Shown here piece after piece: positions 24,201 through 48,120 of a stretch of 64,000 nucleotides of DNA. The notes under the pieces were generated by a model that worked only from the letters and a program-made list of their open reading frames with translations, did no database searches and had not been told where the DNA came from. Source of the stretch: Tetmemena sp. SeJ-2015 (lineage: Eukaryota; Ciliophora; Spirotrichea; Sporadotrichida; Oxytrichidae); assembly GCA_027382625.1 (NCBI GenBank), contig JAJKFJ010020997.1:1-64000 (forward strand), in the 5' to 3' direction. A program made the translations under genes and the position numbers. Within the stretch, counting starts at the first letter, position 1. The number at the start of each line of letters is the position of its first letter.

Positions 24201-27200
24201 GAATTAGTATCGGTGCCTGTCGTGTTAGTAGTATTTGTGTCAGTAGAGTTAGTATCAGTTTAATTTGATCCTCCATCAGTGGAATTTGTGGTTGTACTAT
24301 TTGTAGTTGTGCTATTACTTGTATCTGTGTTATTATTGTATCTGTGCTATTGTTGTATCTGTGTTATTGTTGTATCTGTGTTATTGCCAGTGTCTGTATG
24401 ATTACTAGTGTCTGTGTTATTACCTGTGTCGTATTATTCGTACTGGTGCTATTGTTAGAATCAGTTGTATTTGTGCTATCAGTAGTATTCGTAGTATTGT
24501 TATCTCCACTATCGGTTGAATTAGTGCCACCTGTGTCATATTAAAGTTAAAAAGACTTGATTGATTTCATCGTCCCCAACCTTCTCCATTATCAGATAGG
24601 CCAGTTTCATCTGTTGAATTACTACCTCCTGAAGAAGAATTAGTGCTGCTGTTTGTAGTTCCACCAGTGGTACTATTTGTTGTATTAGTAGTTGTTGAGT
24701 TAGTAGTTGTCGAATTAGTTTTAGTTCCATTCGTTGTAGTGTTGGTATGTGTGGTATTTCCAGTTGTGGTATTAGTCTTAGTACCTCCATTCCTTCTTTT
24801 ATATTCTGAACTGCTATGGGAAAATATTGAAACTTTTTATAATCAGTGTCGGATGTAGGGAGTTGCCCTTGGGAATAAGGATCGCTTATGGTGTTATCAG
24901 TACTGCTATCAGTGTCTATAAAGTCATCTAGGTTTGAGCTATCAGCTGTAATGTTTTGGTAAATACTCACATTTTTGTACTAATAATAGAGGACACGTCA
25001 ATAGTCCCAAGCAGATTAGATATGACAACTTATAATTATTTCTTATTCAATATACTTAGGAGGTTTTAGTTGTAGAAGTTGGGGTGGTGTAAACATAAGA
25101 GCCTGACATTAGGCCATAGTGTCTGTCACGTTATACTCTGGAGTCTTGCACCAACAAAGTCAGTGGAATAAAAGATGCAGCCATACCCACAAGTGTTATA
25201 ACGATAGGACACACTCATCTTAAATATTTCATTTTATCACTTTGAACGTTGAGAGTGCAGCCAATACAATTATATATTGCACCACTCCAAGCTGAGTTAA
25301 ATAAGTAGGTGCTATTCTGATCCAATTAAAAATATTTTTGATCCGTCAAGGCAATGTTCCCTGAAAGGTAGAAAACTTAAATAATAAACTCCTCCCCCGA
25401 TGAAGCCAGTGTAGCTCCCAGATGAAAGTAAAGTGTTTCTATATACTTTGCAATTCTGGACATAGTTGTTACTCATTTACAAAGTCCCTGAACAGAAATT
25501 TCAAAATTAATACTTGTGGGGAAGTTGATATTATTGTTGATTGAGTTTTGATAGAAGTCTGTATAGAAATCATCTACATAATCTAGCTGACTCTGGCCTA
25601 AATTGTTACTGGAGCAAAGCAAGCGCATATAAGAAATGCTTCCTGATATCGAGCCCGAGCCACTTTAAAATTAACTTAGATAGAACAACTGACCACTATC
25701 AAATGCAAACACATCTGAGAAGTTTGACTGCTGCACGATGAGTGTGATTCCTTAACTACTGTCTCCAAGCATCAAACTTCCCTTGAAGGCAGTTTGTAAT
25801 TTCAAATTATTTTATAATCATAAAACTTTGATGTTCTTGGCAGAGATCGAGAAAGCCCCTCCTCCGTTGAGATTGTTTTGAGTTGAGGAGTACCAACTCT
25901 CGTCAGTGAAAATAATTTATGATAGCTCCTTGTAGGCCACTTGCTATATCGGTAAGCTAACTATTTTGAATCCTCATGTTAAGAGTCATGTTGGAGCCTT
26001 TAAAGAAGAATATGCCTCCGTTTTAAAAAGATTGCTTAAATATTAAAATGTTATCAATTGTCTTGAGGCTTTTGATTATGAAAGTGTCGAAGTCTATATA
26101 GATTAGGGAGCTGAGTTGAATCAAGGTTCCATCATCGTCTTGAATTAAAAGCGTGTCTTGAATCTAGAAGTACTCAAAGTCAAAGTAGTAAGCTCCCCCT
26201 TAGAAAGCTTGACTATAAATATTCGTTTATTAAATTAAGTAAAACTATTAGAAAAGGTGGGGCTTGTTTGAACAAGCTGCAGGCAGTTAAAGCAGTAAAT
26301 GCTGCCACCAAAGTGAGCATAGTTGTTAATCAAAACAATTTAAAAGTTGTAGCTGTAAGAAGACTGTAGCTCCTGAAGATAGACGTAGAAGTTTGAGCGT
26401 ATGTGGAAAATAGAACCTCTATATCCATATCTGCACCCTGAAAACGTATTTCCCAGTGATAATACCCCCGTCTCCTTATCATTAGTTATTATCACAAAGG
26501 CTGTTCCATAGGTGTATCCTTGGGAATCAAGAGAGTTAAATTGCTTTATTCTAGCCAACTGTGCGTCATAAAATTCTTAAGTTATAGCAAAACTAAAAAA
26601 TATTTGTGCTCTTAAATGAACTTATATTTGTATAGAATATGACTGATGTCTTGTTGGCGCTGGAGTAAAGTTTTGAGTCGGACACATTTTGGATTACTTA
26701 GCTTTGACTAATCACTATCGAGAAGGGGCTAGTCTGTTAATTTATGAAAAAGAGGTAGCCAGCTGTTTGATAGTACCAGCTACTAGAAATAAATAATTAA
26801 TCAAGTTTAATATTAAAATTCAAAGAAGAAATCTATTTTTAGTGTTTGGCAGGAGCTTCCAATCTCCATTCATAGTCATATCCATTATAGCCATAAGTGT
26901 TTTTAAAAGTAGAATTATGCGAGATAGACATTTGCCCCCAGACCATCAGAGAAATAAAACATGCCACCTGCTATTGAATGAATGTTTGAGAATGAAGAAT
27001 TCTAGATTGTCAGATTTTGATATTCAGATAAGTATGACACGTTAAAAACTTATTGATAAATATTTTAACTGAGCCAGCATTTCCAATTATGTTGTCGAAT
27101 TTAGAATTTCGAATAGTGAAACTTGAGCCTGTTCTTGTGCTGAGTAGCATCTAGAAGATTTGATTATAATTAGTGAGCGACAATGTTGAGAAGTTAGTTT

Positions 27201-30200
27201 GATCATAAGAACCATCCTCGTCATCTGTTGTTGACAGATTTGAGTTAATGTAGGCAAAGTTCAAACTATCTAACAGAGCTTGATTGGTTTAGACCACAAA
27301 ATTAAATAATTCAACAAATAGCGCTTGCTTGTTATTGCATTGACAATTTTAAATTAAAGCAAAATTTAAACAGTCCACGCTTTAGATAGTCACATTTTTC
27401 ATTGCAAATATAGTCATAGGGAACGAACTATTAAAGTAAATATAGCAAATCTTACAATTAACTGAAGATAAATCCCGTTTAATTAAAAAAAGAGAATTTA
27501 ATTGGTGGTGCTACTTGTAAAGAACAAATTTTTGAAAGTGGTATTTGCTAGCCAGAGCCCATTAAGCCTGGATGTAAAATAAAACTAACTTTCACTTATA
27601 AAAATGTTGAGTCTTTGGCTATAAGAGGGATCTTCATATAGTCGTAGGTATCAGGCAATTCTATTTGTAACACGTCCTTGATAAAGCTGTTCTGTGTCAA
27701 TCCTTTAAGTTTTTAGTTCATAAACTTCTAACTTACCTAACTGATTTGCAATCAAAGTGTTAAAGTGATATAAATATTGCTTTACTATGATAAGTGTTGT
27801 TGATTTTGAGGACACCAAAAAAATCTTTCAAAGTTAGAACGGACCCTCTAGTTTGATTTTGAGTAGGATCGTAGGCGAAGTTGTCTTTGAAGCTCACTTT
27901 TAAAAATGTTAAACATTATCTCTAATTACTATATTAAAAATGTTAAACATTAACTCTAATTACTATATCACTTCGTCTACACTAAGGAATACTCCAGTTT
28001 AGTAGTAGATGCATAAATAATTATAATCCGCAGCCGAGAGAGAAATTTCCCTTGGCTTCTAGAAACTAGTTCTCATAGTCGAAGCCAAAAGATTAATAAA
28101 CCATACTCCAAAATAAGTCAAACTACAAAAGACTTTTAGATTTTTAAAGTCATCAAGAATCTAATTAAGCTTCATCATGTCGTATTATACATCTCTGTAA
28201 TACTCCAGGTCATCGTAGGTGAACAAAGATATGTTCTTGCCCTGAAGAGGAGATAAGGAACATCTGGTAATACCAGAAAGCTTAAAATATAACTTCGGCA
28301 ATATTTTCACCGTTGTTAATGAAAGTCTCATTCTTGAGATACATTCTAAAGGCTCCAATGAAAATAATTTACTTTGCATGATGTTGACGATGCCTTCGTT
28401 GCAAGATGCCAGGTTGCTATCGTAGGTATTTTTTGAAAGCACTGAGTAGTATCTATTGAATACGTACTTTCCTTTTAAATGCATCTCCCATCAATTGAGC
28501 ATCTGAAGGAGCCGTATTAGAGAAGTCCATTACCGATGTAGTAGTTAAAAAGAAAAGCAAATATAACACTTTAATTGACAGATCTTGATTTATTTGAGTG
28601 AGGTTCATAGCAGAGGTCTGTCCAGAATATCGTTTGCCCTTCCAAACGTGCTCCACTGAGCATTGTTGTTGATTGGTAAGCATTGAAAGCTAACCACACA
28701 TAAATATCATAATATTTAAGATTTATTTTTTACACTTCCTCCGTATTTAGGACAGCCGAAATTTCTTTAAAAGGTGTTATTAGTTATAACTACGCCCCCG
28801 CAAGGAGAGTAAGTAGATTTAAAATTCCAGGTCAACATTTATTGATCATAAAATTTAACCAGGAATATATTAATTTAAAATTGACTTTTGGAAATATTGC
28901 ATTTCATTTATTATTTCTTAATAAATTTGTAAAATTTTTTTTTATAAATCGTACCTTCTAATGAATATGGCTGTGGTGCCATAGTAAGCGAAGTTCTGTG
29001 TGAATCTGTTATTTTAAATTAGAATGAATGCTTATTCGTAGGCATTTTGATTAACTTGAACAGAATTTTCAATGTAAACATTTTTATTAATAATTTATAA
29101 ACGACTCCTTTAATGACCGCATTTAGTTAAAATATTATTTCCTTGAAAGGTGTTATTTGTTATAGTCACTGAGAAACCATGCTTTCTTATGGAAATCAGA
29201 TTCTTAATTTGCATGAATTATTATATATCCATAAACACATATATTTTAGGTATGTGTATTTTAAATAATTTTAATTATCTCTTAATCGTAGAAGTGCCAA
29301 AAAAGTCCTGCGACTAAAAGATTGGGTACTTGTCATTGTCATCACTGTATATAAACCCTTGGTCGTTTGAAAATATTTCACACCCGTTTTGATATCCGAG
29401 CAAATTTCCATCAAACGTGGAATCTTTCACTGTGACAGACCCATTGAAAGAAAAAATATATAGACATATTATATAGAATTTTAATTTAAAGATCTAAGGG
29501 TCAGCATTTTCCCGTGGTATTGCAAATCGTAATGTGGCGAGACAAGATTAACCGTATTTTCGTTTGAGAGGAGGAAACCGAAGTTAGTAAAAACACAGGC
29601 CTCAATCAGCAAGGAAATTAATAATAATAAATAGCATATAAAAAATTAAGGAGTAGCAGTTAGTGTCACATTTTACATTAGGGCTGTTTTAGTTTATATA
29701 TTGTCTTTAGATAACAGTGTTTTGGAGATTATTCTATCTGTAGAGTACATTTAATTTACAAATAATTATGATGCCTCTTCTATTTTGCTAAGGACCTTCA
29801 GTTGAGTCTATATTCGGAGAAAAGAAATTTCTGAAATTCCTCACAACAGACCCACAACTTGAGATGCGATCGAACAAGCTATTTCTTATCTTGATAAAAC
29901 AAATTTAAATGGAAAATGAATATAGATATGTCCACCATAGGAGTTAGTCTCAATTAAAGTGTTGAAGTCGTAAAAATAGTTCCTGAATTCACAGTTCTAG
30001 AAGTATGATTAGAGTTATTGAGAATGTGCTTCTTACTTCAATTAGCAGAGTTGGTGGTTCTGTGAGTTGAGAATATCTAGACACGTCGAACTTTATAAAT
30101 GTTTACAAGATATAAATAGTGTTTTATGAATGAGGGCCCATCTGCTATATTACATACTTCACTCCTACATATTTTTAAACTTTAATTCTTACTATAGAGT

Positions 30201-32959
30201 GGCCCCTATAAAATTTGAAAATTAAATTATTTGATTTCTATATTACAGACTTCATAGCTGATGGTCATATCGTAAACTGTGATGGTTTAAGAGCTTTCGT
30301 CCACTTTACAACAAGGTTTAAGTTATGACAGGCACTCGGGTATAGTTTTAAATTTAGCTCCATCTACAATTGAATCTAGACTGTCTATGATAATGTTCTA
30401 TAAAGTTAGTCCTGCTCCAACGTTCAACTAAAACCACTCCCCTTGCTTATTATAGATCCTAACCTTTTAGCTTTTATCTTGGGCGCAGCCTGTGTAGACT
30501 GGTCCTGTGAATATTCCAGAGCAGTAGAAAGGAGAGATCGTTACGCTAATTATCTAAGCCTGATCAATATTAAAAGTATAAGCATCTAATCATCAAAGAC
30601 GGTGGGCTAATAAAGTTTTCGATAGGACTTTAAAATATAGTGGTCCATCAAAGGGTCATAGATCAGCAAGATTTAATAAAAAATTTAAGATATATATCTG
30701 GCAAAGCGTCTCAACAGGTGCGCAAATCTCATAAGCTCTCAGCAAAGCATTTTATAATAATTTTATCTTACAAGTAGCTGAATGGGTTATCTAAGGTGCC
30801 TGCTTACAATTTAGGATCCACGTCATCTGTATTGTAAGGAGGTTTCACGAATAAGAAATCAGTCAAGCTTGAAATAGTCTTTACAATGCATGTCCCAAAA
30901 GATTCTCCTTGATTCATAACCTCAAAGTTATTTTTCAAACTACAGTAAAACTCTCATTTAGTTTACTGAGGTAAAAATTTTGACCACAAGAGGTACATTA
31001 ATCGTAAGAACTGCCCACGCACTCCACACAACTTTTGTCGCAAGTCAAGCAAGTTGAAGATTTAAGCTAACCTCTTATAGAAAACTCCCTTTCGCCATAG
31101 TAGCCAGTTGGGCAAACTGAGACACATATTTAAGGAGAGAAAGAGATGAAATAAATTTTTCCTTGAACTGGATCGTTATACTAAAAGCCGTTTATGCAAG
31201 CAGTGCAGCTATCAGTTCTGATTATCCCATTTGAAGTTTAGCAACTTGAACACTAAGGATAGTAATTTATTTCAGTAGCACTGCTGCTACTAAGGTCACT
31301 ATCTGCAGCAATATTGTTGCAGCCTAAATGCTATTAACTAAAAAATTAATTTGATTACTTAAGCACTCATTATAGTAGGCATTTTAATATTAAATCGGTG
31401 ATTGGTTAAAATAATAAATGGAAAGTTGCATTTTCGTGGAAGTTTAAATCATAGATTCATCCCTAATCTGCAGCTTGTTCGATTGATTATTACAAATTAA
31501 TACGAATTTATTCTTTAATCATCTTCAATGCATCTCTCAGTAGAGAAATATGATGTGCGCACTCATCATCATCCTCATAACCATCTTAATCAGAACTTGT
31601 GTCGCTTTTAACTCTTGACTGAGCGCTCCCACACACAAGTTACAAGGATGAAAAGTTCTTAGAATTTTATGATGAATCAAATGGTCTAATAGTTATTTAA
31701 ATCGGAAACATTTCAACCTCCTCTGATTTATTCCATTTTAATTTAATATCTAATTTAATTCTTATCTTTATTAAATTCTTAGCTATATTGTATAGAGTGT
31801 AGGATTCCTCGCATGTATTGCATTAGCTTCTTCCTTAGTCACAATAGAGGCAATTAGAATCTGAGCATTTGCTGCAATATTTAAATATATTTCTAAGGAT
31901 TCACAAAATAGCCATCATCACAAAGCTAGCACTTTTGATCTACATTTGAATTACCATCGCATTTTAATCACCTGTGTCAGTTTAAGTTTAGATGCAAGAA
32001 TCCAAATAGTCAACTTTAGGATTGGCCAGATTGCATTTGCTCTAGTCATTTGAGAATTAAAATTTTAAGATAATTGAGTATGAATTTTTTAAAAAGAACT
32101 GAGTTAAACAACTTTGGCAGTTGGACTTATCAGTTGGGTCGCAAGACAAGCAATAGGGATTCCCATCGCACTCTACATTAATTATCAGTAAACATCAGTC
32201 AGTCAATTTGCCACTGAAGTTGTAATTTTTTACCTTGGCATAAGTTGAAATCCCTGCCTTGATACTAGTCTTGGAAATTTACCCATCCTTGGTCCTTCCC
32301 TTCTGCATCGCACTTCTCGCATCCTGTAAGAAAACGAATTTAAAGTATTGAGGTTGCAAGAGACGCAATAGTCTCCACAAGATTTGCATACACCAAGGTT
32401 CGGGTCGTTAATGAATTGATATGCGGCTAGAGGGCAGTCAGGCACGCAAAATGTGAATTTTGGAGGGTAAGCTGTACTGTCAACCCCAGTGAGGTTCGAC
32501 AATTAGAAATAAGCCCTCGTTGCACTTAGAGCATTCACAAAAATTAATTGAAATATAGATTAAAAAAATTTCATTCTATATATTGGATAAAGTTCAAGCC
32601 TCCATAATTTTCTTTTGTGCATTTCTAGCAGCCATAGATTTTATAATAAAAATTTTAAGAGTTAACCAGAGCAACCTGAGAAATAATTAATTATTCCCAT
32701 ACCAAGATGGTGCTATAAACTTACGTATACAATTTAAATATGTCTCCACTAAACTATATATATTATTGAATAAATAAATTTCCATTATCGTCCATGAACT
32801 CATAGTCACTTTCACCTAAGATAAAAATTTGCTATTGAAAACTAGAACGTTAGTTAGCTTACAAATAGAGGAGGGTACGAAGCTTGCTCGAAGTAAGATG
32901 AAAAGAGTAAATAGAGTGAATGAGATGAATAAAAAAACAGCGTTTTTTGAAAGTGTCAT
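15290..32959 (-). CDS. Giant beta-helix repeat membrane protein, paralogue B (interrupted by IESs and introns)
   Basis: Starts at ATG 32957-32959 with a typical signal peptide (MTLSKNAVFLFISF, then more hydrophobic residues). A 47-bp GT-AG intron follows, then Cys-rich blocks (for example CVPDCPLAAY, CKSCGDYCVSC, CTSCGQNFY), long beta-helix-like repeats (31-25 kb and 23.9-19.5 kb) separated by a Ser/Thr/Asn/Asp repeat linker, a second Cys-rich region near 19 kb, several membrane segments (18.9-17.4 kb) and a charged cytoplasmic-looking tail (17.3-15.3 kb, with segments such as NPHGQSQRFLVMETQYIDDE and PYDSIRRMIDQEEEEKYNET). It aligns along its length with paralogue A. Four IESs near the 3' end are resolved by that alignment. 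The C-terminal end runs into aberrant sequence, so the stop is not seen. The function is unknown; a surface protein fits the architecture. Confidence 0.75.
17396..17426 (-). other. IES in paralogue B, pointer AAT (plus strand)
   Basis: A 31-bp AT-rich insertion lies between AAT at 17396-17398 and 17427-17429. Removal turns a frame that ends in TGA into EEDN-ILLREKYSETLR, matching IEDNNILREKF in paralogue A, whose own IES lies a few codons away. Confidence 0.7.
18644..18670 (-). other. IES in paralogue B, pointer AAAAT (plus strand)
   Basis: A 27-bp insertion with AAAAT at 18644-18648 and 18671-18675. Without removal the minus frame reads into TGA. With removal it reads LIKFSVDCFL, matching LIKSFQLIAS in paralogue A, which has no insertion here. 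Confidence 0.8.
18800..18819 (-). other. IES in paralogue B, pointer AAAAC (plus strand)
   Basis: A 20-bp insertion between AAAAC at 18800-18804 and 18820-18824. Removal restores SSVFLKIL, matching TSVFQKIL in paralogue A, and avoids a TGA. Confidence 0.8.
18900..18919 (-). other. IES in paralogue B, pointer TGCT (plus strand)
   Basis: A 20-bp insertion between TGCT at 18900-18903 and 18920-18923. Removal gives NVVRIIGILAVAILAIVFMIR, which lines up with NVVRIIAIFLGAILLISFMIR in paralogue A. Confidence 0.8.
23944..24900 (-). repeat. Ser/Thr/Asn/Asp-rich repeat linker in paralogue B
   Basis: Minus-strand reading gives long runs of NSTDTNSTDTTTNTTDTD-type repeats built from short, imperfect hexanucleotide-like units. 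It lies between two beta-helix blocks and has no counterpart recognised in paralogue A. The composition suits a heavily O/N-glycosylated extracellular stalk (inference). The frame changes at least once, so slippage or small IESs are likely. Confidence 0.75.
27901..27968. repeat. 34-bp tandem duplication (one mismatch) in paralogue B
   Basis: A unit beginning TAAAAATGTTAAACATTA occurs at 27901-27934 and 27935-27968 with a single T/A difference. Each copy contains the palindrome TGTTAAACA core. It lies in a break between coding blocks. Confidence 0.85.
32816..32862 (-). other. 47-bp GT-AG intron after the signal peptide of paralogue B
   Basis: On the minus strand it starts GTAAGC and ends ATCTTAG, with a CTAACTAAC branch-like motif. 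Splicing joins FVPSSI-C-ESDYEFMDDNG, carrying the signal peptide into the Cys-rich region in frame. Confidence 0.75.
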
Positions 32960-33446
32960 CCCTATAATTATTTATACTTATTATTCTAAATATAAATCAC
33001 TACTCAAATCAGATCAGACTTTTTTCACAATTAAATTTTGGGAAATTTAATACCTACACACTGTCGTAATGGGACTAAATTAATAATCTAATGATAGATA
33101 TGGAACATTATTTTAATTTTAGTAGTAACATTTTAATAATCCTCTTGAACCTTTAACATGAGTGAATGTTAATTTTAAACCTTAGAGACTGAAAGAGGAT
33201 CCAAAGAGATTAGGGGATGATTCATTTGGTTGAATTATTATATTTGGGAGAGAGTGACTCTATTCTTTCTCTTAATCTCAGGATTTGGATCTTCTTATTA
33301 AAAGCTGACCTCACTCATAAATATTTTCATTTATGAATCACACAGCATTTAATGTGTGTTCACTCTTAATGTAGAGGCTGTGATTTTAATATAATTACTA
33401 AGTAATTTTCACACAATAGATACACGTAAACCCACCAAGCAGCAAC
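32960..33446. promoter_or_regulatory. Divergent intergenic region between paralogue B and aldolase
   Basis: AT-rich spacer of about 490 bp between two genes reading outward. No coding of merit on either strand. It should hold both promoters, but no consensus element could be identified with confidence. Confidence 0.5.
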
Positions 33447-34517
33447 ATGGTAGAGAAGAAGAACTTCACAGAGGAACTCATTGAGACCGCAAGAAGAATC
33501 GTCAGACCCGGATACGGCATCCTCGCCGCCGACGAGTCCACCGGCACCATCGGCCAGCGTTTCGCCAAGATCGAGGTCGAGAACGTTGAGGCAAATAGAC
33601 AAGCCTACAGAGAGCTTCTTTTCACCACTGAGGGACTCGAGAACTACATCTCCGGAGTCATCCTCTTCGAGGAGACCCTCAACCAGAAGGCATCCAATGG
33701 TACCCCCTTCCCCGAGCTCCTCAAGAGCAAGGGCATCATCCCAGGCATCAAGGTCGACAAGGGACTCGTTGTCATCCCAGGCACCAATGATGAGAGCTCC
33801 ACCACCGGACTCGATGGCCTCGCCGACAGATGCAAGAACTACTACGAGAAGGGTGCTAGATTCGCCAAGTGGAGAGCAGTCGTTAAGATTGGACAGGGCA
33901 GACCCTCAGAGGCAGCAGTGCTCGAGACCGCACACACCCTCGCCAGATATGCAGCTATTTGCCAAGAGAATGGACTTGTGCCCATCGTTGAGCCAGAGAT
34001 TCTCACCGACGGAGATCACAACATCAGTGTCTGCGCTGAGATCTCTGAGAGAGTTTTCAGAAAGGTCGTCCAGGCCCTCCATGAGCAAAAGATCCTCCTC
34101 GAGGGTATCCTCCTCAAGCCTAACATGGTCACCCCAGGTGCCACCTCAACTGAGAGAGCAACCGCACAGGAGATCGCATGGCTCACTGTTAGAACTCTTT
34201 CCAGAGTTCTTCCCCCCGCAGTTCCAGGAGTCACCTTCCTCTCAGGCGGTCAAAGCGAGGAGGAGGCTTCCCTCAACTTGAACGAGATGAACAAGATTGA
34301 TGCTAGAATCAGACCCTGGGCCCTCACCTTCTCCTACGGTAGAGCTCTTCAGTCCTCCACCCTCAAGGCATGGGGAGGCAAGGTTGAGAACGTCAAGGCT
34401 GCTCAAGAAGCTCTCCTCGCCAGAGCTAAGGCCAACGGCGAGTCTGCTTTGGGCAAGTACGCTGGTGGTGCCGCTGGAGACACCTCAAGTCAATACGTTG
34501 CTAACTACTCCTACTGA
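33447..34517 (+). CDS. Class I fructose-bisphosphate aldolase
   Basis: 356 codons, ATG to TGA, uninterrupted. It cleaves fructose-1,6-bisphosphate to glyceraldehyde-3-phosphate and dihydroxyacetone phosphate in glycolysis. Family landmarks are clear: [15 protein letters not shown] near residue 24 (active-site Asp29), the AKWR motif (Lys141), VEPEIL (Glu182/Glu184), [13 protein letters not shown] with the Schiff-base Lys224, the [11 protein letters not shown] phosphate-binding region, and a C-terminal Tyr. The length matches animal and plant class I enzymes (about 360). Unlike its neighbours it has no IES, no intron and no TAA/TAG codon at all, and is rich in G/C-ending codons, as expected for a highly expressed gene. 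Confidence 0.97.
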
Positions 34518-35105
34518 GGAGTGTTGTTTGTTGAAGATCTGCAAAAGATCCGCAAGCAGAGGAAACATATGATGCATGTAAACCTAACATCTATTTATTT
34601 CTAAGGTTCTTAAGATTCATATCTTTTTTTTCTCTCGTTATGGTATTGATTCCTGCAGAGATTATCCTAATTAGATGAGAGTGAATCCTTATGTGCATTA
34701 CTCCAATTCAATTGAGGCATAATGAATCATCAATATTATCAAGATTGAATATGGGTGTGGATATATTAAGTTCATAGTAGTAGCTCCTGAAATTGAAAAC
34801 AATAACTCCTAATGAGCTTCAAAATTCAAAAAATAAGATTTTTGATAGTATGTAATTACGAATATGATTTTACTCTTGCACATTAGCTTTCATGAATAAC
34901 TAAATTTAGATTTTAAGAAGAAAAACTACTCAACCACTGATCTGAAGCTATGCCTAACATTAAATTCAAGATTTAATCCTCTTATCTGTCTTATTTATTT
35001 AATAATGATGAGTTAGATTGAATCCCAACTCAATACTTCGCAAGATAACATATTTTTTACTATAAAATAAGTTGCAAATTTTAACGAAATAATGCTTATT
35101 TTTCA
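34518..35105. other. Intergenic region downstream of aldolase
   Basis: AT-rich, about 590 bp, between convergent genes. It should contain both 3' ends. No gene, repeat or conserved RNA seen. Confidence 0.6.
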
Positions 35106-38839: not shown

Positions 38840-39222
38840 TCAAAAATCAAAGAAAGGTCTCATTTCGCAGTTCTTGAGCCAATAATAGTCGAGCAGAGAG
38901 CCATCCTCGCCAACTCCAGATGCAGTAAGAGTGGCAAGGGTTCTTGAGTGTGAGACTATGGCATACTTCTCTTGGGTCTCAGAGTCTAATGGGTTAGCAA
39001 GGAGATATTCCCTCATGAAGGTCTTGATGATCTTAGCGCGCTCAAACAGATCGAAGTGGTCTTCATATCTTGGCTCATGAGTAGCTATCTTCTCCAAAAG
39101 CACTTCTAAGTTGTTGATTTCTCCGCTTTCATCTTTCTTCAGAGAGAGGATTAGATCCTTCTACTTGCTGAGGCTTGCAAGAGTGTAGATTTGCCAGAGG
39201 CGAGGGATTCCATACAGGTAGA
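38840..39222 (-). CDS. Scrambled histidine-phosphatase gene, MDS 4 (C-terminal part)
   Basis: Begins with the 11-bp pointer at 39212-39222 (minus-strand TCTACCTGTAT), identical to 48110-48120 on the plus strand. It then runs YGIPRLWQIYTLASLSKQKD to a TGA stop at 38840-38842. It contains KYAIVSHSRTLATLTASG, the second conserved His of the histidine-phosphatase (phosphoglycerate-mutase-like) superfamily, and ends WLKNCEMRPFFDF. The N-terminal catalytic RHG motif is not here but 8.4 kb away on the other strand. The joined protein would act as a cytosolic phosphatase; the substrate is unknown. Confidence 0.85.
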
Positions 39223-39324
39223 TAGATATCATTAGATAGAGAGTCAAAGGCTTGATTAATCAAATAAGGTTTCAACATCTGGTTGGAGATCATTTGAGGT
39301 CTCTAGAACTTATATTAAATAAAA
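39223..39324 (-). other. Germline-only segment between MDS 4 and MDS 2 of the histidine-phosphatase gene
   Basis: 102 bp bounded by the two long pointers (39212-39222 and 39325-39334). In the reconstructed order this DNA is skipped, because MDS 3 comes from the plus strand at 47.97-48.12 kb. Confidence 0.75.
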
Positions 39325-39372
39325 GTTGCTTTTGTTGGGATGCTTCTTAAACATGTGAATCGCAGTTTATAA
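39325..39372 (-). CDS. Scrambled histidine-phosphatase gene, MDS 2
   Basis: Minus strand reads LQTAIHMFKKHPNKSN, a segment expected just after the SP motif of this family. It ends in the 10-bp pointer at 39325-39334 (minus-strand CAAAAGCAAC), which recurs exactly at 47967-47976 on the plus strand. Joining there gives HPNKSN-IKFMILPIVREVL in frame. Its 5' border is uncertain: a 4-bp ATTC match (39357-39360 with 47963-47966) joins in frame to MDS 1 but would lose LQTA, so a short additional piece may be missing. Confidence 0.75.
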
Positions 39373-39502
39373 ATAAAATATTTATAAAAAAGTTAATGCT
39401 TTAATTATAGATGGCTCTTTGCATGGGAGACACACAATTTAAAAGTAGTTCCCATTAGTAAAATCCCAAGTGTAATGAATATAAAAATACTAAATAAACT
39501 CA

Positions 39503-40544
39503 ATGGAATATAAAAGGGAGAAGCAAGCGCAGATATAAACTATAGTAAATGAGTATAACACTGACTCAGCCAAACACCTAATAGATATTGGATCCTCCTC
39601 TCAGCCTAAAGCTAAACTCTATTAAAACTTTTCTCTGATTCAAGACTCTCACTCAGTGAGAATGCTGGAGAGACCATTACTTCAGTCCCTACCTTGGAGG
39701 AAAGCTTTGAACTTTGAAGATAACTAGTTCAAGAAGTCAAAGCTTAAAATTATAATGTTGTGAGAATGCTATAATTTTTTTTAAAGCTTGACGTGCACGA
39801 TATAAAATTATCTATATTTATATTTTTACTGACAGCATAGTTTGGTTCTACAAAAATTTTTGCAATTTTTCTATTTAATTATCAGAAAGAAGACAGCGAA
39901 GAAGAAGAAAACTCTGAAAAGAAATAAAATGAGAGATTATCAGAAGATCTAAATCTCAAACTAACTAAAGAAGAAATGCCTCTATTTCCGATATTCCTTT
40001 AATCCAATAATTAGTAGAGTCTTTCAAATTAAGGAGATGACTCGGATGAAGGGATTGATCTAAATCTAGAATGCCAAAATGGATTCATAGAGTAATAAAT
40101 TCATAAGCTCCAATGCACAGAGATAATGGTTTTGCCAGCGTGCTTTCTAATTTTATTTATGGAAGCGAGTTAAAAGACTTAGACTACTCCAATTTACCAT
40201 CTTACAACGTGCTGCAAGATCTTATTTAAGAGGAACAAAGAATCAATAAATTGTAGAAACATATCCAGAATTGCTTGAGCTTACACTGGATAAATAAAGA
40301 TGAATTCTTTGTAGCTTGGGTTTAAGGGAAGAATGGTGTCCGAGTCTCTAAAGTCAGACTTTCAAGTGACCATTCTAAAATTATAGAATATAGAGCTGTA
40401 ACTTAGTCGGAAAAGGTGATGTTCAATACCATTTCTTAGCTGGAATTCAAAGGACCAGAGCTCCTTATCTCCAAAGACTTTTATAATCTTCAAATCTCAA
40501 GCTTTAAGGGTGAATTAATCTCCAATACTCATAGTTTCAGCTCT
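39503..40544 (+). CDS. Scrambled WD40-like gene, first part (MDS block A)
   Basis: ATG 39503-39505 opens MEYKREKQAQIQTIVNEYNT. Further blocks include an acidic stretch (KEDSEEEENSEKK) and HWINKDEFFVAWVQGKNGVR, then LISKDFYNLQISSFKGELIS. It ends in the 13-bp pointer TAGTTTCAGCTCT at 40532-40544. Continuing along the plus strand loses the homologous sense; switching to the matching pointer at 53252-53264 on the minus strand continues in frame (NTHSFSSDSNIIQFN). One IES (39739-39782) is resolved, and another break lies near 40.15 kb. The domain style is beta-propeller. A role in Pol I initiation (Rrn6/TAF1C-like) is a weak guess. Confidence 0.75.
39739..39782 (+). other. 44-bp IES, pointer AAAGCTT
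   Basis: AAAGCTT at 39739-39745 and 39783-39789. The unremoved frame hits TGA inside. Removal gives KKSKLDVHDIKL and stays open into the KEDSEEEE block. Confidence 0.75.
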
Positions 40545-40577
40545 TTATAAATGCCATTGATGAATTATATATGTATG
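40545..40577 (+). other. 33-bp germline spacer where the inverted MDS of the WD40-like gene belongs
   Basis: Lies between the 13-bp pointer (40532-40544) and the 16-bp pointer (40578-40593). In the reconstructed gene it is replaced by the 306-bp segment 53264-52959 read on the minus strand. Confidence 0.8.
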
Positions 40578-41423
40578 TTCAAAGTTAAATTCACAAGGAG
40601 GATAACAGCTGTAACAAGATCTCTTGTTTGAAGAAGATAAGGAATGACGGTCACAAGCTTGCAATTGTAGATGAGGAAAACTTCTACATCTATGATGTTA
40701 GATAATCAGCATAACCTATGTACTCCATAAGGCACTACTCAAATGAAGTAGGAAAATTCAATTCAATAGTTCAAGAGTCTTAATATTAGTAGCATGAGGT
40801 TTCTCTGGAGATGATTGATGACTTATAGTCTCTCTAGTATGATTTTCAAATCCTAGATAATTAAAATGAGCATTAAATTATTTAAAGATAAGAAGCAAAA
40901 CCCTTTGAATAATTTCATGACTTATAGCGCGACTCATCCGAGCTTGATGCTGGGGTTAGTGACTTAGAATTATAAGCAACTTAGTAAGAAAGGAGTTATC
41001 GTGAATAGAATGTGTTAGCTAGCTCAGATAGACCTAAATATGCTTACCAAAGGTTTCAAGCCTAGTATCTTCTAATCATCACCTAGCTTCAATACTCTTT
41101 CAAAAATAAGAGGATGCCAATTCATCCTCCTTAATGATCTTTATTTTATCGCAGCCACAACCATTAGAAACAATAGAAGTTGGTTTTCAGTACTGATCAG
41201 TTTGGGGGTCTTTATCTTAGCACAGAAAGAAAAATAGATGAAGACTGGATGAAACAAATGGGGGAAGATCCTTTTTTAATTTATAAGCATTTTTACTTTG
41301 GATGACGAGGGGGTCTAAAAGCTTTTGAAAAAAGACATAAGAGAGGACAAATTGACTGCACAAGTTAATTATGAAAAGCAGTTTACTTTTGAGGAGGTTA
41401 ATTTTGTGAACTTAATAAAGTGA
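40578..41423 (+). CDS. Scrambled WD40-like gene, last part (MDS block C)
   Basis: Starts with the 16-bp pointer TTCAAAGTTAAATTCA, shared exactly with 52959-52974 (reverse strand). The join reads NLLIQSQIHKEDNSCNKISC in frame. It contains HKLAIVDEENFYIYDVRQS, a typical WD40 blade with the closing DVR, then Gln/Glu-rich sequence (LQRDSSELDAGVSDLELQ). After at least one further break come FGGLYLSTERKIDEDWMKQM and FTLDDEGVQKLLKKDIREDK, ending NFVNLIK and TGA at 41421-41423. Confidence 0.75.
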
Positions 41424-41580
41424 ATATTTTAAAAGAAAGATTTTTTACTAATTTTGCGCTTCTGACAACTTGATTTCTTGATTGAAAAGTAAAATTCATT
41501 AGGATTTTATATATGTGGCTGTTCACATGTACTTATTTTTATCAAATTCATAGTTATACCTATACTTGGAATTTATAAAC

Positions 41581-44435
41581 TCAATCAATTTATAAACTGT
41601 AATCCTATTTAAACGAATTGTTTATCAGGCAAAGCATCTGCACCTTTATCTCTAAATTCTACAGGGCTCTATTAAGGACTACTTTAATAGCCCTAACCCC
41701 TATCTTCGTATAAATAAAATGAGAATTTATTTTAAAGTAGCTTTCTTAACTTTCTCTCATTCTTTGAATCTAGAATTTCTTCCTCTGCCCCTTCTTAGTT
41801 TTGACTACAGTCTTCTTTTCTTCATCCTCTAGTTTAACAAACTCTTCAATCCCCAAAAGTGCCCCTGCCCTTTTGTTATTGAGCCAGTCAGCCTACTGGA
41901 AGATATTTTTGTAAGATGAATTTTCCATTTCCTGATTGAGCTATATATGAATAGTCTTCTCATCCAAAAGCTTGTACATCGCGTGAAGGAATGATTAAGG
42001 TACTGCAGTTTTTTACTCCTTGAGTTTCTCTAAAAAGTTTTCAGGAACGTCTGATTCCTTAAAAAGGACGTCCTTTCTCAAAGTTAACACCTTCCTTCGC
42101 ATGAGATACTTATCTTTGAGCATGTCGATTGAGGTATTGAAATGGATCTTTGGGTCTAGCGATTGCTAGGTAGGCAAGGGAAGTAGAAATTGCTTGGACA
42201 ACTCTTCTTGGACTCGTTTCTGCTCTTCCATCTTCTGATTGTAGATCTGCTCTATCTTCATCCTTCTCTTTCTCTCCTTTTCGAGTTCCCTTTCTAGAAA
42301 GATCATCTGCTTAGTTTCTTAGGCCTGCTTTAAAGCGATACTGCTCAGTTATGGATCCTCACTTATTATGATGCACTTGTCTGGGTCATACTCCTAGCAC
42401 TTCCAAGTCTTAACTACGATCTCGCGGAATGGTCTCGGATAGCCTCCTCCCCAATCCGCCACTCTAAAATCGTACTCCTTATCGAATAGACGCCTAGATT
42501 AGACTATTGGGTTAGCTGTGAGATACAAGCATCTGTAGTCTCTCATAACTGCAGCATCAAGCATCATTCTGTAGAGAGCATCTATGCCGAGGAGATCCTG
42601 GATTTATTACAGCTAAGTTTCAATCTTGTTAAGATCATCGATGTTAGTTCCCAGATTCAGAGTTGACTTGAGTAGCTCAATAGAGCTCTCTATCTCTTAA
42701 TTTCTGATTATATTCACTGAGGCATTGTAAAAGAGGAAGTAAGCGAAGGCTGAAATAAGCAAGGAAGTGTTCTTAGTGGAGCTGATATCCCCAGAGATCT
42801 CCACAAAGATAACTGAGATTCAAATATAGGCATATCATTTTAATTTTTAAGACTACCAGTACAATGAAATAGCAGAGTAGATTCTCAAGGAAGTAATCAA
42901 AAGGCGAGGTGTTGAAAATTAGCTTGTGTAGAAAATATGGTCTGAGAGCAAACAAAATAGAAAATACTGAAACTACTGCCACTGGCCCGTAGCTTTCTCC
43001 CATAGGGCCTACTATTTCTCCATGAAATAAATCTTGATAAGCTTCAGGCATCTCTCCTGCAAAGAACGAACCCAATAAAATAAGTGGAAAAGCTCCCAAA
43101 GCGCCTCCCAAAGCATGCAGCTCATAAGTTGAATAGTCATCAATTCCAACCATCTAGTCATCGTAAATAATCTGATCGAAAATTTAATCAAGTTTAGAAA
43201 GCAAAATGTCGTTTGTGCCAGCGAATAAGTGCATATGAAGTTACACATGATCATAATCGTCTATCATAGCTTCAAGTTCTAAGTTTTCAAAAAAATCGTT
43301 CTCTATCCTCATCTTTTCATCAGCCAAATAGCTTGAGGAAAAGTTGTTGAGGAGCAGTTCTATTTAATTATATAAACTAAAATTTTAATGGCTCTCCTTT
43401 TGTATCATTAAAGCCTTATGTATCTAATTTTGTTACTGATGTTGTATCCCTACTCTAGAGAAATCAAATACTTATTATAAATGAAATGCCTGTTTCGTTT
43501 TCAATAATCTATCTATACTAGATCTCTTCAGCCTTCTCAGATTCTCAAGTGCTCTTCTTTTATCCGGATTTGTGTCTTCACTAGTCCTTCTACTCCTCGT
43601 TTTTTCTGTGGTATTTTCAGTTTCCTCGGTCTTTGAACTCTCTTAAATAATCTTATTATTGAGTGCCTTGTAAAAATCCGCTCTCTTATAGATGACAGAT
43701 TGTTTAGAAACAAATCTGGGTTTTAAATTTCCTTACTCGTCCACATCCTCCTTGTGTATGGAAGTAGTTTCTTTTTAGTACCTTTTCTGCTGCATGCGAT
43801 CTTTTAAGCCCTTGAGTAGGAGCATTCTTTTAGATGTCACTCCACACAGAATGGAAAAGGCGCGAGACAAGACGCAAAACACAGGGCCTTGATAGTTTGA
43901 TTGGGCTGAAATCTTGAATGAAGACAAGGATTTCCCCTCATAGATTATTGTATCATAGAAGAAATAACCTATGATGGATAAAACTACAGCCACCCAGTGC
44001 TGTGCAGAGAGACTTCTTTTCAGAATTAAGGGAGAGAAGATGCATGTCCACAATAGATCTGCTCCTAGTGCTAATATGAGAAATCTACTAGTGTTCATAT
44101 CTGGCTAGAAAAGGGAATAGGCTTAGCACATCAGATAGCTTGCGTACAGAATACTCAGGAAGCAGTTTTACTTTAAGTCAAGGAAGCAGACTTGCTAATT
44201 CGGATTCTTATAAGTCAGAAGTTTTCGAATCATATAACCAAGCGATACTACAAACTAGCCAACTAAAATGTCATTTTTAAGTTTCCTGATTCTTACATAT
44301 AAGAAAACCACTCGAGTAGAGAGGGTAGTTCCACCCTCAATCGAAGAGCCAGCTATACATTCCAACGAAAAAGGTCTGATGAGTGAATAGTCCTCCTACG
44401 AGTCCTATGATTGAATAACCCTTTTTGTTTTACAT
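41581..44435 (-). CDS. Membrane transporter-like protein with long second module (possible fusion)
   Basis: ATG at 44433-44435 opens MQNKKGYSIIGLVGGLFTHQ. After one frame break come multiple hydrophobic helices including SAQHWVAVVLSIIGYFFYDT, suggesting a drug/metabolite-transporter (SLC35/EamA) type protein. A charged linker rich in Lys/Arg/Gln (43.8-43.4 kb) continues without an in-frame TGA into NDFFENLELEAMIDDYDH, a second membrane region (ALGGALGAFPLILLGSFFAG, 43.1 kb), and after a break near 42.8 kb a soluble domain (RVADWGGGYPRPFREIVVKT) with a strong coiled coil (LERELEKERKRRMKIEQIYN) and a basic end. The TGA stop is at 41581-41583. It could be one fused gene or two adjacent genes whose short spacer happens to lack TGA. 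The second module was not assigned to a family. Confidence 0.55.
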
Positions 44436-44640
44436 TTTTTGAAATTAACTTACAAAGAAGAAGAACAATAATTTACAATTTACTATACAAGTGTAATCAG
44501 AGGCTGAAATCGTTTATTATTTAGTTTATAATCAAAAATTATAAATAAAGCTTGTTTTAAGCGTCCTCTTCAAACCTACCTTTGCATATCTTGTTGAAAA
44601 GAGCCAAGCTTGGAAATTTAAGGTCCTCTCTCACAAACTT

Positions 44641-47150
44641 ATGGAAAATTCACAGAATCAGCAACACCAGTCTAACTAGGTAAGTTGCCCTTGATAATTA
44701 GGCGTCGCAGATGTAAGCAACCTATTAAATAGAACGAAGAAATGAAAGAAGAAAGAAATGAAGGTCACAATGGGAGCATGATCGGACATCGCGATCTCAT
44801 GGCAAACCTCCTCCAAATAGCTGTTATCAACAAAATGCTCCCAAAGGGCTACAGATTTGAGCACTATGACACAGTCAAGAGGTAAAATGAGAATCAGAAC
44901 AACCCTAAAACTGTTCCTCAGAAGCGTAGGAAGGTAAGTGCGCTCAAAATCATCAGAAAATACTGCATTAGTGCAAATGTATTGGTCTATATTTGAAATA
45001 TCTCACTTTCCTTTCATAGAACAATCAAGATACGGATTATGGAGAAGGAGGATCCACTATAGGTGGAGTTGCTTCACCCAAAGCTATTTATTTTTCTAAT
45101 GGTAAGAGATAAAGAAGGCCTAAAAATGAAGATTTAAATGAAAATAGCGCCACATCAAGCTTTTCAGATGATAACTAGAGTAATTACCGCAATCAACAGT
45201 CACTCATCTTTCTATAGAGTCATCTCACAATACTCTTAATTATATTTACCAATCAAATGGGAAAGCGAGTATCGCAGAGACAGAAGAAGCCAACGAACTT
45301 TGAGGATCTAGGATATGAGGAAAGAGGAGCCAAAAGATCGAAGCAGACTACCACAATTTGGAAAGAGACGCAAGGGAAATGCGAGCAGGTCATTCAGTTA
45401 CTTAAGAAGCGGCCAGGAGCAGAGCTATTTTCTAAGCCGCCAGAGCCAACACATAAGTATTACACAGAGATCATGCAGGACTATATGGACCTGAGTTTAG
45501 TTGAGAGCAAGTTTAGGAAGTGCGATTATTAAAGCTCAATCCAGTTTGTCTAGGATGTGAGGATGATCTGGGACAAAGCCTTTCGGTACATGAAGGATGA
45601 CCCAGAGTAGTTAAGAAAGGCTAAGGAGCTAAGAGATTTCTTTGAGCTGCAGGTTAAGGAAATAGAGGGAATCAGTTTCAAAGAGGTCCTCACTAAAAAC
45701 GCAGGTGATCCAAATTCTGCAGTTGCCGAACTTAAAACCACTTTAACTAAGTATCAAAAGGAGATGGAGCCCAAGTTTGCTAAGGAAGCCCCATAGCCAC
45801 AACCTTAGAAAGCAAGCAGAGAAGCAACCAGGAAAGCAGATCAAGGGAAAGACAGGGGGTCAGACGAGCAGATAAGTTTAGCAAGAGAACCCTCCTCCTA
45901 TAGCTGCCTAGCAATAATATTCTCAGCAACTTCCTTCGCAGCCACCTTAAGGATAATAACAAGAAGAGCACTCAATTAGAAACGATGCAAATCATTTGGA
46001 TATTGTACAGGAGGAGGACTTAAACACGCCTATGATGTTCTCAGAGAGGCAGACCCTGGGCCATAACATTCAGTTTTTGAATACTGAGCAGCTGCTTGGA
46101 ATTGTACCAATAATCTAAGACAGTAATCAACCTCCAAAGGAGATTTTAGAGTTCGATCTCAAAGAGCTATCACATCGAAAATGCAGAGAGCTTGAGCGAT
46201 ATGTTCTTAAATGCATCAAAGAAAACCAATAGAAGCAGAGAGAAGAGCAATAGAGGCAAGAAGAGCTTAAAATTCAGCAGTAGTAGTAAGAGGCTTAAAA
46301 GCAGCAAGCTCAGCTTCAGTAATAAAAGTAGCAAAACCTCATCCCTTCACAAGCGCTCTTAGATCCATCGAAACAATCTCCTATGCCTGGGGCATAGCCT
46401 GGTTTTCCAGAATCTCAACTAGCAGCTTAAAACGCAAATTTTATGGTCTCTCCTATCAATCAGCAGCCTTATGTGTATCAGTAAAATCTGTTAATGGGTC
46501 AGCCTAACATGGGTATGATGGACCCTCAGTACCAGATGTATCTATAACAATAACAATTTTAGAACTAGCAAGCTGCTTTGGCAGCTTAGCAATAGCTGCC
46601 TGTGGACGGCTTGAAACGTCCAGAATAGCAACAACCAGCTCAGTAGATGGCCTTCAACCAGTTTGGGCAACCTCAAATAGGTCAAGCCTAATAGCAGCAG
46701 CTTATGAATCAATATATGTATGCTCAGTATGGCTAGTAGATGCCAGAAGACTAGCAGCAGTTTCTCCAGCAGCAAAATCTAGCCGCATAAAACTTACTAG
46801 CAGGGCAATAATTTTATGCGGGGATGCCTATGAACGGTATCGACCCGTATCAACAAAATTACTAATAGATCAACCAGCAGCAGCATTTAAAGGAATAGAG
46901 CTTTTTATATTTACTAAAAATGTATTTGTTAATGATTGGGCTTAAGGTGCTGACTAGGGACAAGGCAATTTCAATGGTTGAGAGACCTCACTCAATTAAA
47001 TAGTAAAAGATAATAAGGATTGTATTAAGCAAAACTATATAAGCATTAAATTTTGTATATCAATTATTATACAGTCAAATATATTCTTCAAACCGTCCCG
47101 TAAATATGTATTTTTAGCAATATTAAAGGGTATCGTTTGTATTCACTTGA
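44641..47150 (+). CDS. BET-type bromodomain protein (bromodomain + ET domain, polyQ tail)
   Basis: ATG at 44641 (MENSQNQQHQSNQ), then two GT-AG introns. A bromodomain (45.36-45.65 kb) shows KYYTEIMQDYMDLSLVESKF and FVQDVRMIWDKAFRYMKDD. It is followed by a Lys-rich linker, a frame break near 45.86 kb, then an extra-terminal (NET) domain, LEFDLKELSHRKCRELERYV (46.15 kb), and a long Gln-rich tail in which most Gln are TAA/TAG/CAG. BET proteins read acetylated histones and recruit transcription machinery. The BRD-ET order supports the assignment. The usual acetyl-lysine-contacting Asn after the Tyr in the BC loop appears to be Met here. The conserved part ends about 46.86 kb; the first in-frame TGA is at 47148-47150. 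Confidence 0.85.
44680..44732 (+). other. Intron 1 of the BET gene (53 bp, GT-AG)
   Basis: GTAAGT ... AAATAG. Splicing joins HQSNQ-NEEMKEERNEGH in frame. Confidence 0.75.
44934..45019 (+). other. Intron 2 of the BET gene (86 bp, GT-AG)
   Basis: GTAAGT ... TTCATAG. Splicing joins TVPQKRRK-NNQDTDYGEGG in frame. Confidence 0.75.
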
Positions 47151-47169
47151 GTGATAAAAAGGGAATAAG

Positions 47170-47655
47170 AGTGGATATATTTCCTTTTATAAAAATGGTT
47201 TTCATCAAAGAAACAATTGGCCTAAGTTTTCAAGTTTTCATCTACATAACAATAATTATCTGCAACCTCTCCTTCTACTTCATAGTAGTAGCTTCTAATT
47301 CATTTATTTTATTTCACATGAAACATTATCAAACCAACTGGGAGATAGCACCCTTGCTTCAACACTTTGTGAAGAACTATTTTTATTTGAACCTATTGAA
47401 CTCCAAGCGAGACTCTCAGAACAAGTTAGGAAGCAATTTAGCGATTTATAGCAAGAGAATAAAAGTTAAAAATTAAAAAATAACAATTCCTGTAAAGATC
47501 ATAATAAATTAATTGATTCTGCTCCACGCGAGTAATAAGAGTAATAGATTAAAGCTCTGCCTTAGTCAGATAATCAATAATTATTGCCTAAAAATTATGA
47601 TTAACTCGTTCTTCATTATACTTCTATTTTGGATAGAACCATAAACTTAGTAAAC
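47170..47655 (+). CDS. Unassigned Gln-rich coding segment
   Basis: One plus-strand frame is open with Gln as TAA/TAG and reads LQARLSEQVRKQFSDLQQEN, then DSAPREQQEQQIKALPQSDN and LVLHYTSILDRTINLV, with coiled-coil character. It has no recognisable start and meets TGA right at the start of histidine-phosphatase MDS 1. A different frame of the same DNA is hydrophobic over 47.2-47.4 kb, so the true frame of the first half is uncertain. It may be an MDS of a scrambled gene (the end of the BET gene, or one of the neighbours). No partner pointer was found. Confidence 0.4.
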
Positions 47656-47659
47656 GTAA

Positions 47660-47966
47660 ATGGAAGACATTGACTCACAAATAGCAAGATTGAACATCAA
47701 GTTGAGACACGATCCCATCTCTCCAGAAGAGCTAAAAGCAGCCTCATTTATCATTATAAGGCATGGATACAGTGAGTATAACTACAGAGATTAGCAGATT
47801 ACTGAGTAATTCGGAGAATCTTCCCCAGAAGCTCAGAGATTAAAAACTGATGCCACTCTGGTAGATCCTGTCCTCCATCAGATTGGAGTGATTTAATGTG
47901 AGAGCAACCAGGAACTTGCAAACGTCATCAACTTTAAAGTCGTGTTTGTGTCTCCCATTGAAATTC
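47660..47966 (+). CDS. Scrambled histidine-phosphatase gene, MDS 1 (N-terminal catalytic part)
   Basis: ATG 47660-47662 opens MEDIDSQIARLNIKLRHDP. It contains the superfamily signature FIIIRHGYSEYNYR, whose His (about residue 35) is the phospho-acceptor, then LVDPVLHQIGVIQCESNQEL and KVVFVSP, all in the order expected for phosphoglycerate-mutase-like phosphatases. TAG/TAA codons are used as Gln. After VSPIEI the plus strand switches directly to MDS 3, so the LQTAIHM segment must be supplied from 39.37-39.33 kb on the minus strand. Confidence 0.85.
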
Positions 47967-48120
47967 CAAAAGCAACATCAAGTTTATGATTCTTCCCATC
48001 GTCAGAGAAGTTCTTTAAATAAGCTTAATCGCTTTAGTTGAAGCCATAGTGAGAAAGTATGCTCCAGGTGAACCAATTTGCGAGGGTCTAAACTTCAATT
48101 TCTCATTTGTCTACCTGTAT
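47967..48120 (+). CDS. Scrambled histidine-phosphatase gene, MDS 3
   Basis: Bounded by pointer CAAAAGCAAC (47967-47976; partner 39325-39334, inverted) and pointer TCTACCTGTAT (48110-48120; partner 39212-39222, inverted). It reads KFMILPIVREVLQISL, YAPGEPICEGLNFNFSFVYL, containing the conserved P-x-x-RE segment of the family. Both junctions are in frame with the minus-strand pieces, giving the odd/even alternation 1(+), 2(-), 3(+), 4(-). Confidence 0.85.

What the first reader, a model, noticed from the sequence alone, without database searches (positions are those of the whole stretch)
38840..48120. Scrambled, inverted histidine-phosphatase gene: MDS order 1(+) 2(-) 3(+) 4(-) across 9.3 kb
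The RHGYS-containing N-terminus and the LP-x-x-RE segment lie on the plus strand at 47.66-48.12 kb, while LQTAIHM and the VSHS-containing C-terminus lie on the minus strand at 39.37-38.84 kb. Two exact inverted pointers tie them: CAAAAGCAAC (47967-47976 / 39325-39334) and TCTACCTGTAT (48110-48120 / 39212-39222). Switching strands at each pointer gives one in-frame protein in canonical family order. Staying on either strand does not. This is the odd/even pattern known from scrambled hypotrich genes, with other genes nested in between. The MDS 1-2 join is not settled; a short piece may be missing.
Basis: partly seen in the sequence, partly recalled or inferred. Interest (0 to 1): 0.95.

Follow-up and report, generated by a model that had tools for sequence, protein, structure and literature searches.

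The report
Scrambled, inverted ciliate germline phosphatase gene
In this ciliate's germline DNA, one enzyme gene is cut into seven pieces that alternate between two places and two strands, with other genes in between; it is a clear new example of gene scrambling already known from this group.

Summary
The locus is a scrambled germline gene of a hypotrich-type ciliate (TAA/TAG = Gln) that encodes a histidine-phosphatase family protein. Seven pieces fit. Three plus-strand pieces (47660-47958, 47967-48014, 48037-48120) alternate with minus-strand pieces (39434-39408 plus 39369-39325, 39311-39271, 39222-38840). Five exact inverted pointers of 12, 10, 7, 6 and 11 bases tie them; one ordinary 40-base TA-flanked insert splits the first minus piece. 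Joined, they give one 292-residue open frame. It aligns without gaps to two 292-residue relatives: 222 of 292 residues identical to P0001 (probably Oxytricha) and 209 of 292 to a Stylonychia lemnae protein. At all six junctions, switching fits the relatives and staying does not. Searches of the 146 Mb assembly showed no other complete copy. At least two other genes lie between the clusters. This is a new member of a known kind: an odd/even, inverted, gene-enclosing locus. No macronuclear molecule of this species was available.

The parts
47660..47958 (+). MDS1 (coding part): start codon to pointer 1; residues 1-100, RHG motif (R34, H35). MDS numbers 1-7 here are 1, 2a, 2b, 3, 4, 5, 6
   Evidence: 72 of 100 residues identical to P0001
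47947..47958 (+). pointer 1 TGTGTCTCCCAT, copy at end of MDS1
39423..39434 (-). pointer 1, inverted copy at start of MDS2
39408..39434 (-). MDS2 (inverted), residues about 96-104, ends in TA pointer; holds R102 of SPMQR
   Evidence: new residues 101-104, 4 of 4 identical to P0001
39370..39409 (-). conventional IES, 40 nt including one TA, 7.5% G+C, flanked by TA
39325..39369 (-). MDS3 (inverted), residues 105-119 QTAIHMFKKHPNKSN
   Evidence: 14 of 15 identical to P0001
39325..39334 (-). pointer 2 CAAAAGCAAC, copy at end of MDS3
47967..47976 (+). pointer 2, copy at start of MDS4
47959..47966 (+). IES between MDS1 and MDS4, 8 nt, 25% G+C
47967..48014 (+). MDS4, new residues 120-132 IKFMILPIVREVL; holds E130
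   Evidence: 10 of 13 identical to P0001; E130 invariant in 7 of 7
48008..48014 (+). pointer 3 AAGTTCT, copy at end of MDS4
39305..39311 (-). pointer 3, copy at start of MDS5
39312..39324 (-). IES between MDS3 and MDS5, 13 nt, 0% G+C
39271..39311 (-).
   Evidence: 10 of 11 identical to P0001
39271..39276 (-). pointer 4 GTTGAA, copy at end of MDS5
48037..48042 (+). pointer 4, copy at start of MDS6
48015..48036 (+). IES between MDS4 and MDS6, 22 nt, 23% G+C
48037..48120 (+). MDS6, new residues 144-169
   Evidence: 21 of 26 identical to P0001
48110..48120 (+). pointer 5 TCTACCTGTAT, copy at end of MDS6
39212..39222 (-). pointer 5, copy at start of MDS7
39223..39270 (-). IES between MDS5 and MDS7, 48 nt, 29% G+C
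38840..39222 (-). MDS7 (inverted), new residues 170-292 and TGA stop; VSHSR motif with H257
   Evidence: 91 of 123 identical to P0001
41740..44411 (-). other gene lying between the two clusters, matching blocks in linear order on one strand, with breaks near 44261-44300 and 42820-42850; Stylonychia lemnae relative P0016
45380..46205 (+). second gene lying between the clusters: Bromodomain then BET domain, in different frames (taken as one gene; inference)

Best explanation
This is the germline (micronuclear) form of a working histidine-phosphatase family gene. It is scrambled as seven segments in the contig order 7(-) 5(-) 3(-) 2(-), about 8.2 kb holding other genes, then 1(+) 4(+) 6(+). During development of the new somatic nucleus the TA-flanked insert is cut out. 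The two opposed clusters are then interleaved by recombination at five inverted pointer pairs, one copy of each pointer and the AT-rich spacers are lost, and the intervening genes go to chromosomes of their own. The product encodes a continuous 292-residue protein. Shown here: segment layout, pointers, open frame, match to continuous relatives, no other complete copy found in the assembly. Inferred from work on Oxytricha and Stylonychia: that the joining happens in DNA, that conventional inserts go first, that template RNAs guide it, and that the enclosed genes are released separately.
For: Ungapped 292-residue match to P0001 (222 of 292) and to the S. lemnae protein P0002 (209 of 292), with each of the seven segments matching. 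At all 6 junctions, switching matches P0001 in 11-15 of the next 15 residues and staying matches 1-2; for P0002 the figures are 10-14 and 1-3. Pointer runs on the fixed frame are rare. Coding G+C is 42%, against 0-29% in the four spacers and 7.5% in the TA insert. The joined protein passes Pfam His_Phos_1 (32.5 bits, cutoff 21.7). Own-genome searches showed no other complete copy. The window lies on a 107,864-base contig of a genome with 5213 contigs. A telomere-repeat pattern has 67 matches there, several of them overlapping. That does not look like a macronuclear assembly, which in three relatives has 22,426-35,099 contigs (PMC9797194, passage).
Against: No macronuclear sequence or RNA of this species was available, so no rearranged molecule was seen. 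The TA pointer is only 2 bases and carries no statistical weight (193,243 of 200,000 random stretches do as well); its place rests on the protein alignment. Exact repeats without the homology are near chance. The genome search scores only its best candidates and the assembly may be incomplete.
Confidence: 0.96

Rival explanations
1. An old inverted duplication of the gene in which both copies have decayed in complementary parts, with no product; the working gene lies elsewhere.
For: Odd/even loci are thought to arise from duplication and complementary decay (PMC9797194, section 8 read).
Against: Joined frame is open and conserved in every segment, with the motif residues present. No other complete copy was found; the other matches are 26-54% identical, 28-47% and 29-53%, over parts of the protein. 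Flanks outside the pointers match only 8-16 of 50 bases at the five scrambled junctions, about chance, so there is no sign of a duplicate.
Confidence: 0.02
2. Assembly artefact: pieces of one gene placed on two strands by misassembly.
For: No reads could be inspected.
Against: Five strand switches with an exact shared pointer at each, short AT-rich spacers in place of coding sequence, and another gene in linear order between the clusters are not what a chimeric join gives.
Confidence: 0.01
3. The pieces are joined at the RNA level by trans-splicing rather than in DNA.
For: Nothing specific.
Against: Repeated pointers are the mark of DNA joining (recalled, and as in PMC9797194). By my inspection of the sequences, none of the six junctions can be slid within its pointer to give GT...AG ends. 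A Stylonychia lemnae source record encodes the protein as one continuous product on a 1060-base contig.
Confidence: 0.01

Closest known systems
Odd/even scrambled loci of Oxytricha trifallax and Tetmemena (PMC9797194: passages, sections 8 and 11; PMC5940158: passages, section 10)
   Same: Alternating segments in two clusters, a pointer shared by the ends to be joined, longer scrambled than conventional pointers. The pointer order 5 4 3 2 1 1 2 3 4 5 is the 'return word' pattern of PMC5940158.
   Different: Different gene and an unnamed species; the map here comes from protein homology, not from the species' own macronuclear genome.
Nested 'Russian doll' loci of Oxytricha (PMC5940158: 1301 of its 15,811 MAC contigs enclose segments of others; section 10 read)
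   Same: Other genes lie between segments of this gene.
   Different: Only one layer is shown; depth was not mapped.
Stylonychia lemnae actin I (PMC2394655, passages seen)
   Same: Scrambled with an inverted part plus conventional inserts.
   Different: In actin I three of nine junctions are scrambled; here five of six are, and all five change strand.
Oxytricha Contig1679.0, histidine phosphatase superfamily branch 2 (Table 3 of PMC5940158, passage seen)
   Same: Same superfamily name, scrambled, eight segments.
   Different: Branch 2, not branch 1; listed among patterns that do not reduce to odd/even.

Membership tests
Scrambled ciliate germline gene | Segments in non-linear order or orientation relative to the somatic gene | tested here: met
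   against continuous proteins of relatives; the species' own somatic gene was not available
Scrambled ciliate germline gene | Pointer repeat shared by the two ends to be joined | tested here: met
   12, 10, 7, 6, 11 bases, and TA for the conventional insert
Scrambled ciliate germline gene | Rearranged macronuclear molecule in the same species | not testable with these tools
   no joined contig of this gene in the assembly
Odd/even inverted ('return word') pattern | Alternate segments in two clusters, pointer order mirrored | tested here: met
   pointers 5 4 3 2 1 then 1 2 3 4 5 along the contig
Odd/even by duplication and decay | Spacer between n-1 and n+1 resembles segment n | tested here: inconclusive
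   three spacers at shuffle level; the MDS1-MDS4 spacer exceeded its shuffles, but that test included pointer 1 itself; flanks 8-16 of 50
Nested (gene-enclosing) locus | Other genes' coding sequence between segments | tested here: met
   two genes between 41.7 and 46.2 kb
Histidine phosphatase branch 1 (PF00300) | Pfam His_Phos_1 above curated cutoff | tested here: met
   joined protein 32.5 bits against cutoff 21.7, residues 31-114; P0001 34.9, P0002 35.1
Histidine phosphatase branch 1 (PF00300) | Catalytic RHG, Glu and distal His (roles recalled) | tested here: met
   R34, H35, R102, E130 and H257 invariant in 7 of 7 aligned proteins; activity not tested

The most novel reading that the evidence does not exclude
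The scrambling is specific to this gene and perhaps this lineage. The germline paralogs on contig C1880 read straight through the stretch where pointers 1-3 lie, so the locus could show how an interleaved inverted pattern arose. Pointers as short as 6-7 bases bridge about 8.7 kb with inversion, which would need guidance from outside the pointers.
Probability: 0.3. Interest if true: 0.45.

Novelty: new member of a known kind. Interest (0 to 1): 0.33.

Why it matters
It shows that a scrambled, inverted gene can be recognised and mapped to the base from germline DNA alone, using proteins of related species. It adds a compact test locus with paralogs in linear order in the same genome. The biology itself (odd/even scrambling, inversion, enclosed genes) is established.

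Tried and rejected
It gives QISLIALVEA where the relatives have ETSND..PDVE and was replaced. For the frame break in the MDS2-MDS3 stretch a 34-base insert with a TAAA pointer was tried first; it adds two residues that none of the six aligned relatives has and was replaced by the TA-flanked 40-base insert.

Duplication remnants: three spacers against the segments they replace, and the flanks beyond MDS6 and before MDS2, gave nothing above 300 shuffles each; the fourth spacer test exceeded them because it included a pointer. A homology-blind scan for chained repeats did not single the locus out. IMG/VR scan for relatives: 135 stretches matched a pattern, none confirmed. No solved structure matched the profile of A1 at E <= 0.001. 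NCBIfam gave only matches far below cutoffs for P0001 and P0002. Species not identified: none of the germline genome sizes seen in passages of PMC9797194 and PMC10901763 is 146 Mb. Literature searches: none of the rows shown is about this gene; only part of the hits was listed.

Full report
Observation. The window is C2076:1-64000 of an unnamed 146 Mb genome in 5213 contigs; the contig is 107,864 bases. Long frames appear when TAA and TAG are read as Gln. By count alone this is weak (mean 0.70 in 2000 shuffles, 3.8% reach three).

Corrected map. A search with a first join found 13 proteins at E <= 0.001 among 1019 candidates. Among them are P0001 (292 aa; a source gives only a number, which I take from recall to be Oxytricha), P0002 (Stylonychia lemnae, 292 aa) and P0003 (Halteria grandinella, 293 aa). 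The alignment with six of the 13 showed two faults in that join: two extra residues after MQRAI, and a wrong stretch after REVL. Two further inverted pointers, AAGTTCT and GTTGAA, and a 40-base insert flanked by TA resolve both. The final joined frame is 292 residues, ungapped against P0001 and P0002: 222 of 292 and 209 of 292 identical. Segment by segment against P0001 the counts are 72 of 100, 4 of 4, 14 of 15, 10 of 13, 10 of 11, 21 of 26 and 91 of 123. Identity to the six relatives is 57-76%.

Controls. At each of the six junctions, staying on the strand matches P0001 in 1-2 of the next 15 residues; switching matches 11-15 (P0002: 1-3 against 10-14). With the frame fixed by the protein, exact runs as long as pointers 1 to 5 occur in 4, 23, 1123, 3541 and 19 of 200,000 random window stretches; the TA run is uninformative (193,243 of 200,000). 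Coding G+C is 42%; the four spacers have 25, 23, 0 and 29% and the TA insert 7.5%. Against this, a homology-blind scan for chained repeats of 9 bases or more gave this locus 36.6. Another chain in the window reached 39.5, and the best inverted chains of six simulated windows were 32.9-40.0, one of them above 36.6. Pointers without homology would not have found it.

Copies. DNA and protein searches of the own genome found the complete set of pieces only here. More distant relatives lie on C1880 (two, in tandem) and C3189; with the Stylonychia query there were also short matches on C3080 and C454, not followed. The two on C1880 read without interruption through about residues 64-137, which include the places of pointers 1, 2 and 3 and the TA insert. 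So the scrambling was probably acquired by this gene after they diverged (inference).

Between the clusters. A minus-strand gene at 44411-41740 matches P0014, P0015 and the S. lemnae protein P0016 in linear order with small breaks. A plus-strand gene carries Bromodomain and BET domains, in two frames. A third stretch, 39.9-41.1 kb, had no family match.

Mechanism. In contig order the gene is 7(-) 5(-) 3(-) 2(-) ... 1 4 6, pointer order 5 4 3 2 1 1 2 3 4 5. This is the mirrored odd/even 'return' pattern described for Oxytricha (PMC5940158, passages and section 10). In Stylonychia actin I most conventional inserts leave before inversions and reordering, and RNA templates are proposed to guide the latter (PMC2394655, passages; PMC9797194, section 8). 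I infer the same here. Pointers of 6 and 7 bases cannot by themselves specify partners in a 146 Mb genome, which agrees with guidance from outside the pointers.

Origin. The duplication-and-decay model predicts that a spacer resembles the segment it replaces. Three spacers and both outer flanks showed nothing above shuffles; the fourth spacer test included pointer 1 and so does not count. Flanks outside the five scrambled pointers match 8-16 of 50 bases. This leaves the origin open; an old event would look like this.

Family. The joined protein passes Pfam His_Phos_1 (32.5 bits, cutoff 21.7), as do P0001 and P0002. The MDS1 and MDS7 pieces scanned alone did not match it. R34 and H35 lie in MDS1, R102 in MDS2, E130 in MDS4 and H257 in MDS7; all five are invariant in 7 of 7 aligned proteins. 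The presumed active site (roles recalled) is therefore spread over both clusters and both strands. Substrate is unknown.

Novelty. Scrambled genes number in the thousands in Oxytricha (2,021 of 15,811 contigs, PMC5940158 Table 1), and enclosed genes are well described. This is a new, cleanly resolved member.

Noticed in passing
G000:C1880:86898-89332 (L010:1399-3833): Two tandem histidine-phosphatase paralogs in linear order, with apparent conventional breaks.
   Followed up: partly
G000:C3189:42107-43009 (L011:1108-2010): A further distant paralog, in linear order, with an apparent insert near the position of pointer 3.
   Followed up: partly
window 23832-24760, plus strand: Dense direct-repeat stretch (GTATCTGTGT, GTAGTATTCGTAGT and similar), chain score 72.1 against at most 36.6 in six simulated windows; looks like a low-complexity repeat.
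   Followed up: no
G000, 67 matches, e.g. C2828:3805-4156: Telomere-type C4A4 repeats, many inside contigs, some at contig starts; some could be ends of telomere-bearing transposons (recalled).
   Followed up: no
window 42820-42850 and 44261-44300, minus strand: Breaks between matching blocks of the enclosed gene, probably conventional inserts.
   Followed up: partly
window 45626-46028, plus strand: The Bromodomain and BET matches lie in different frames, so an insert, intron or frame change lies between them.
   Followed up: no
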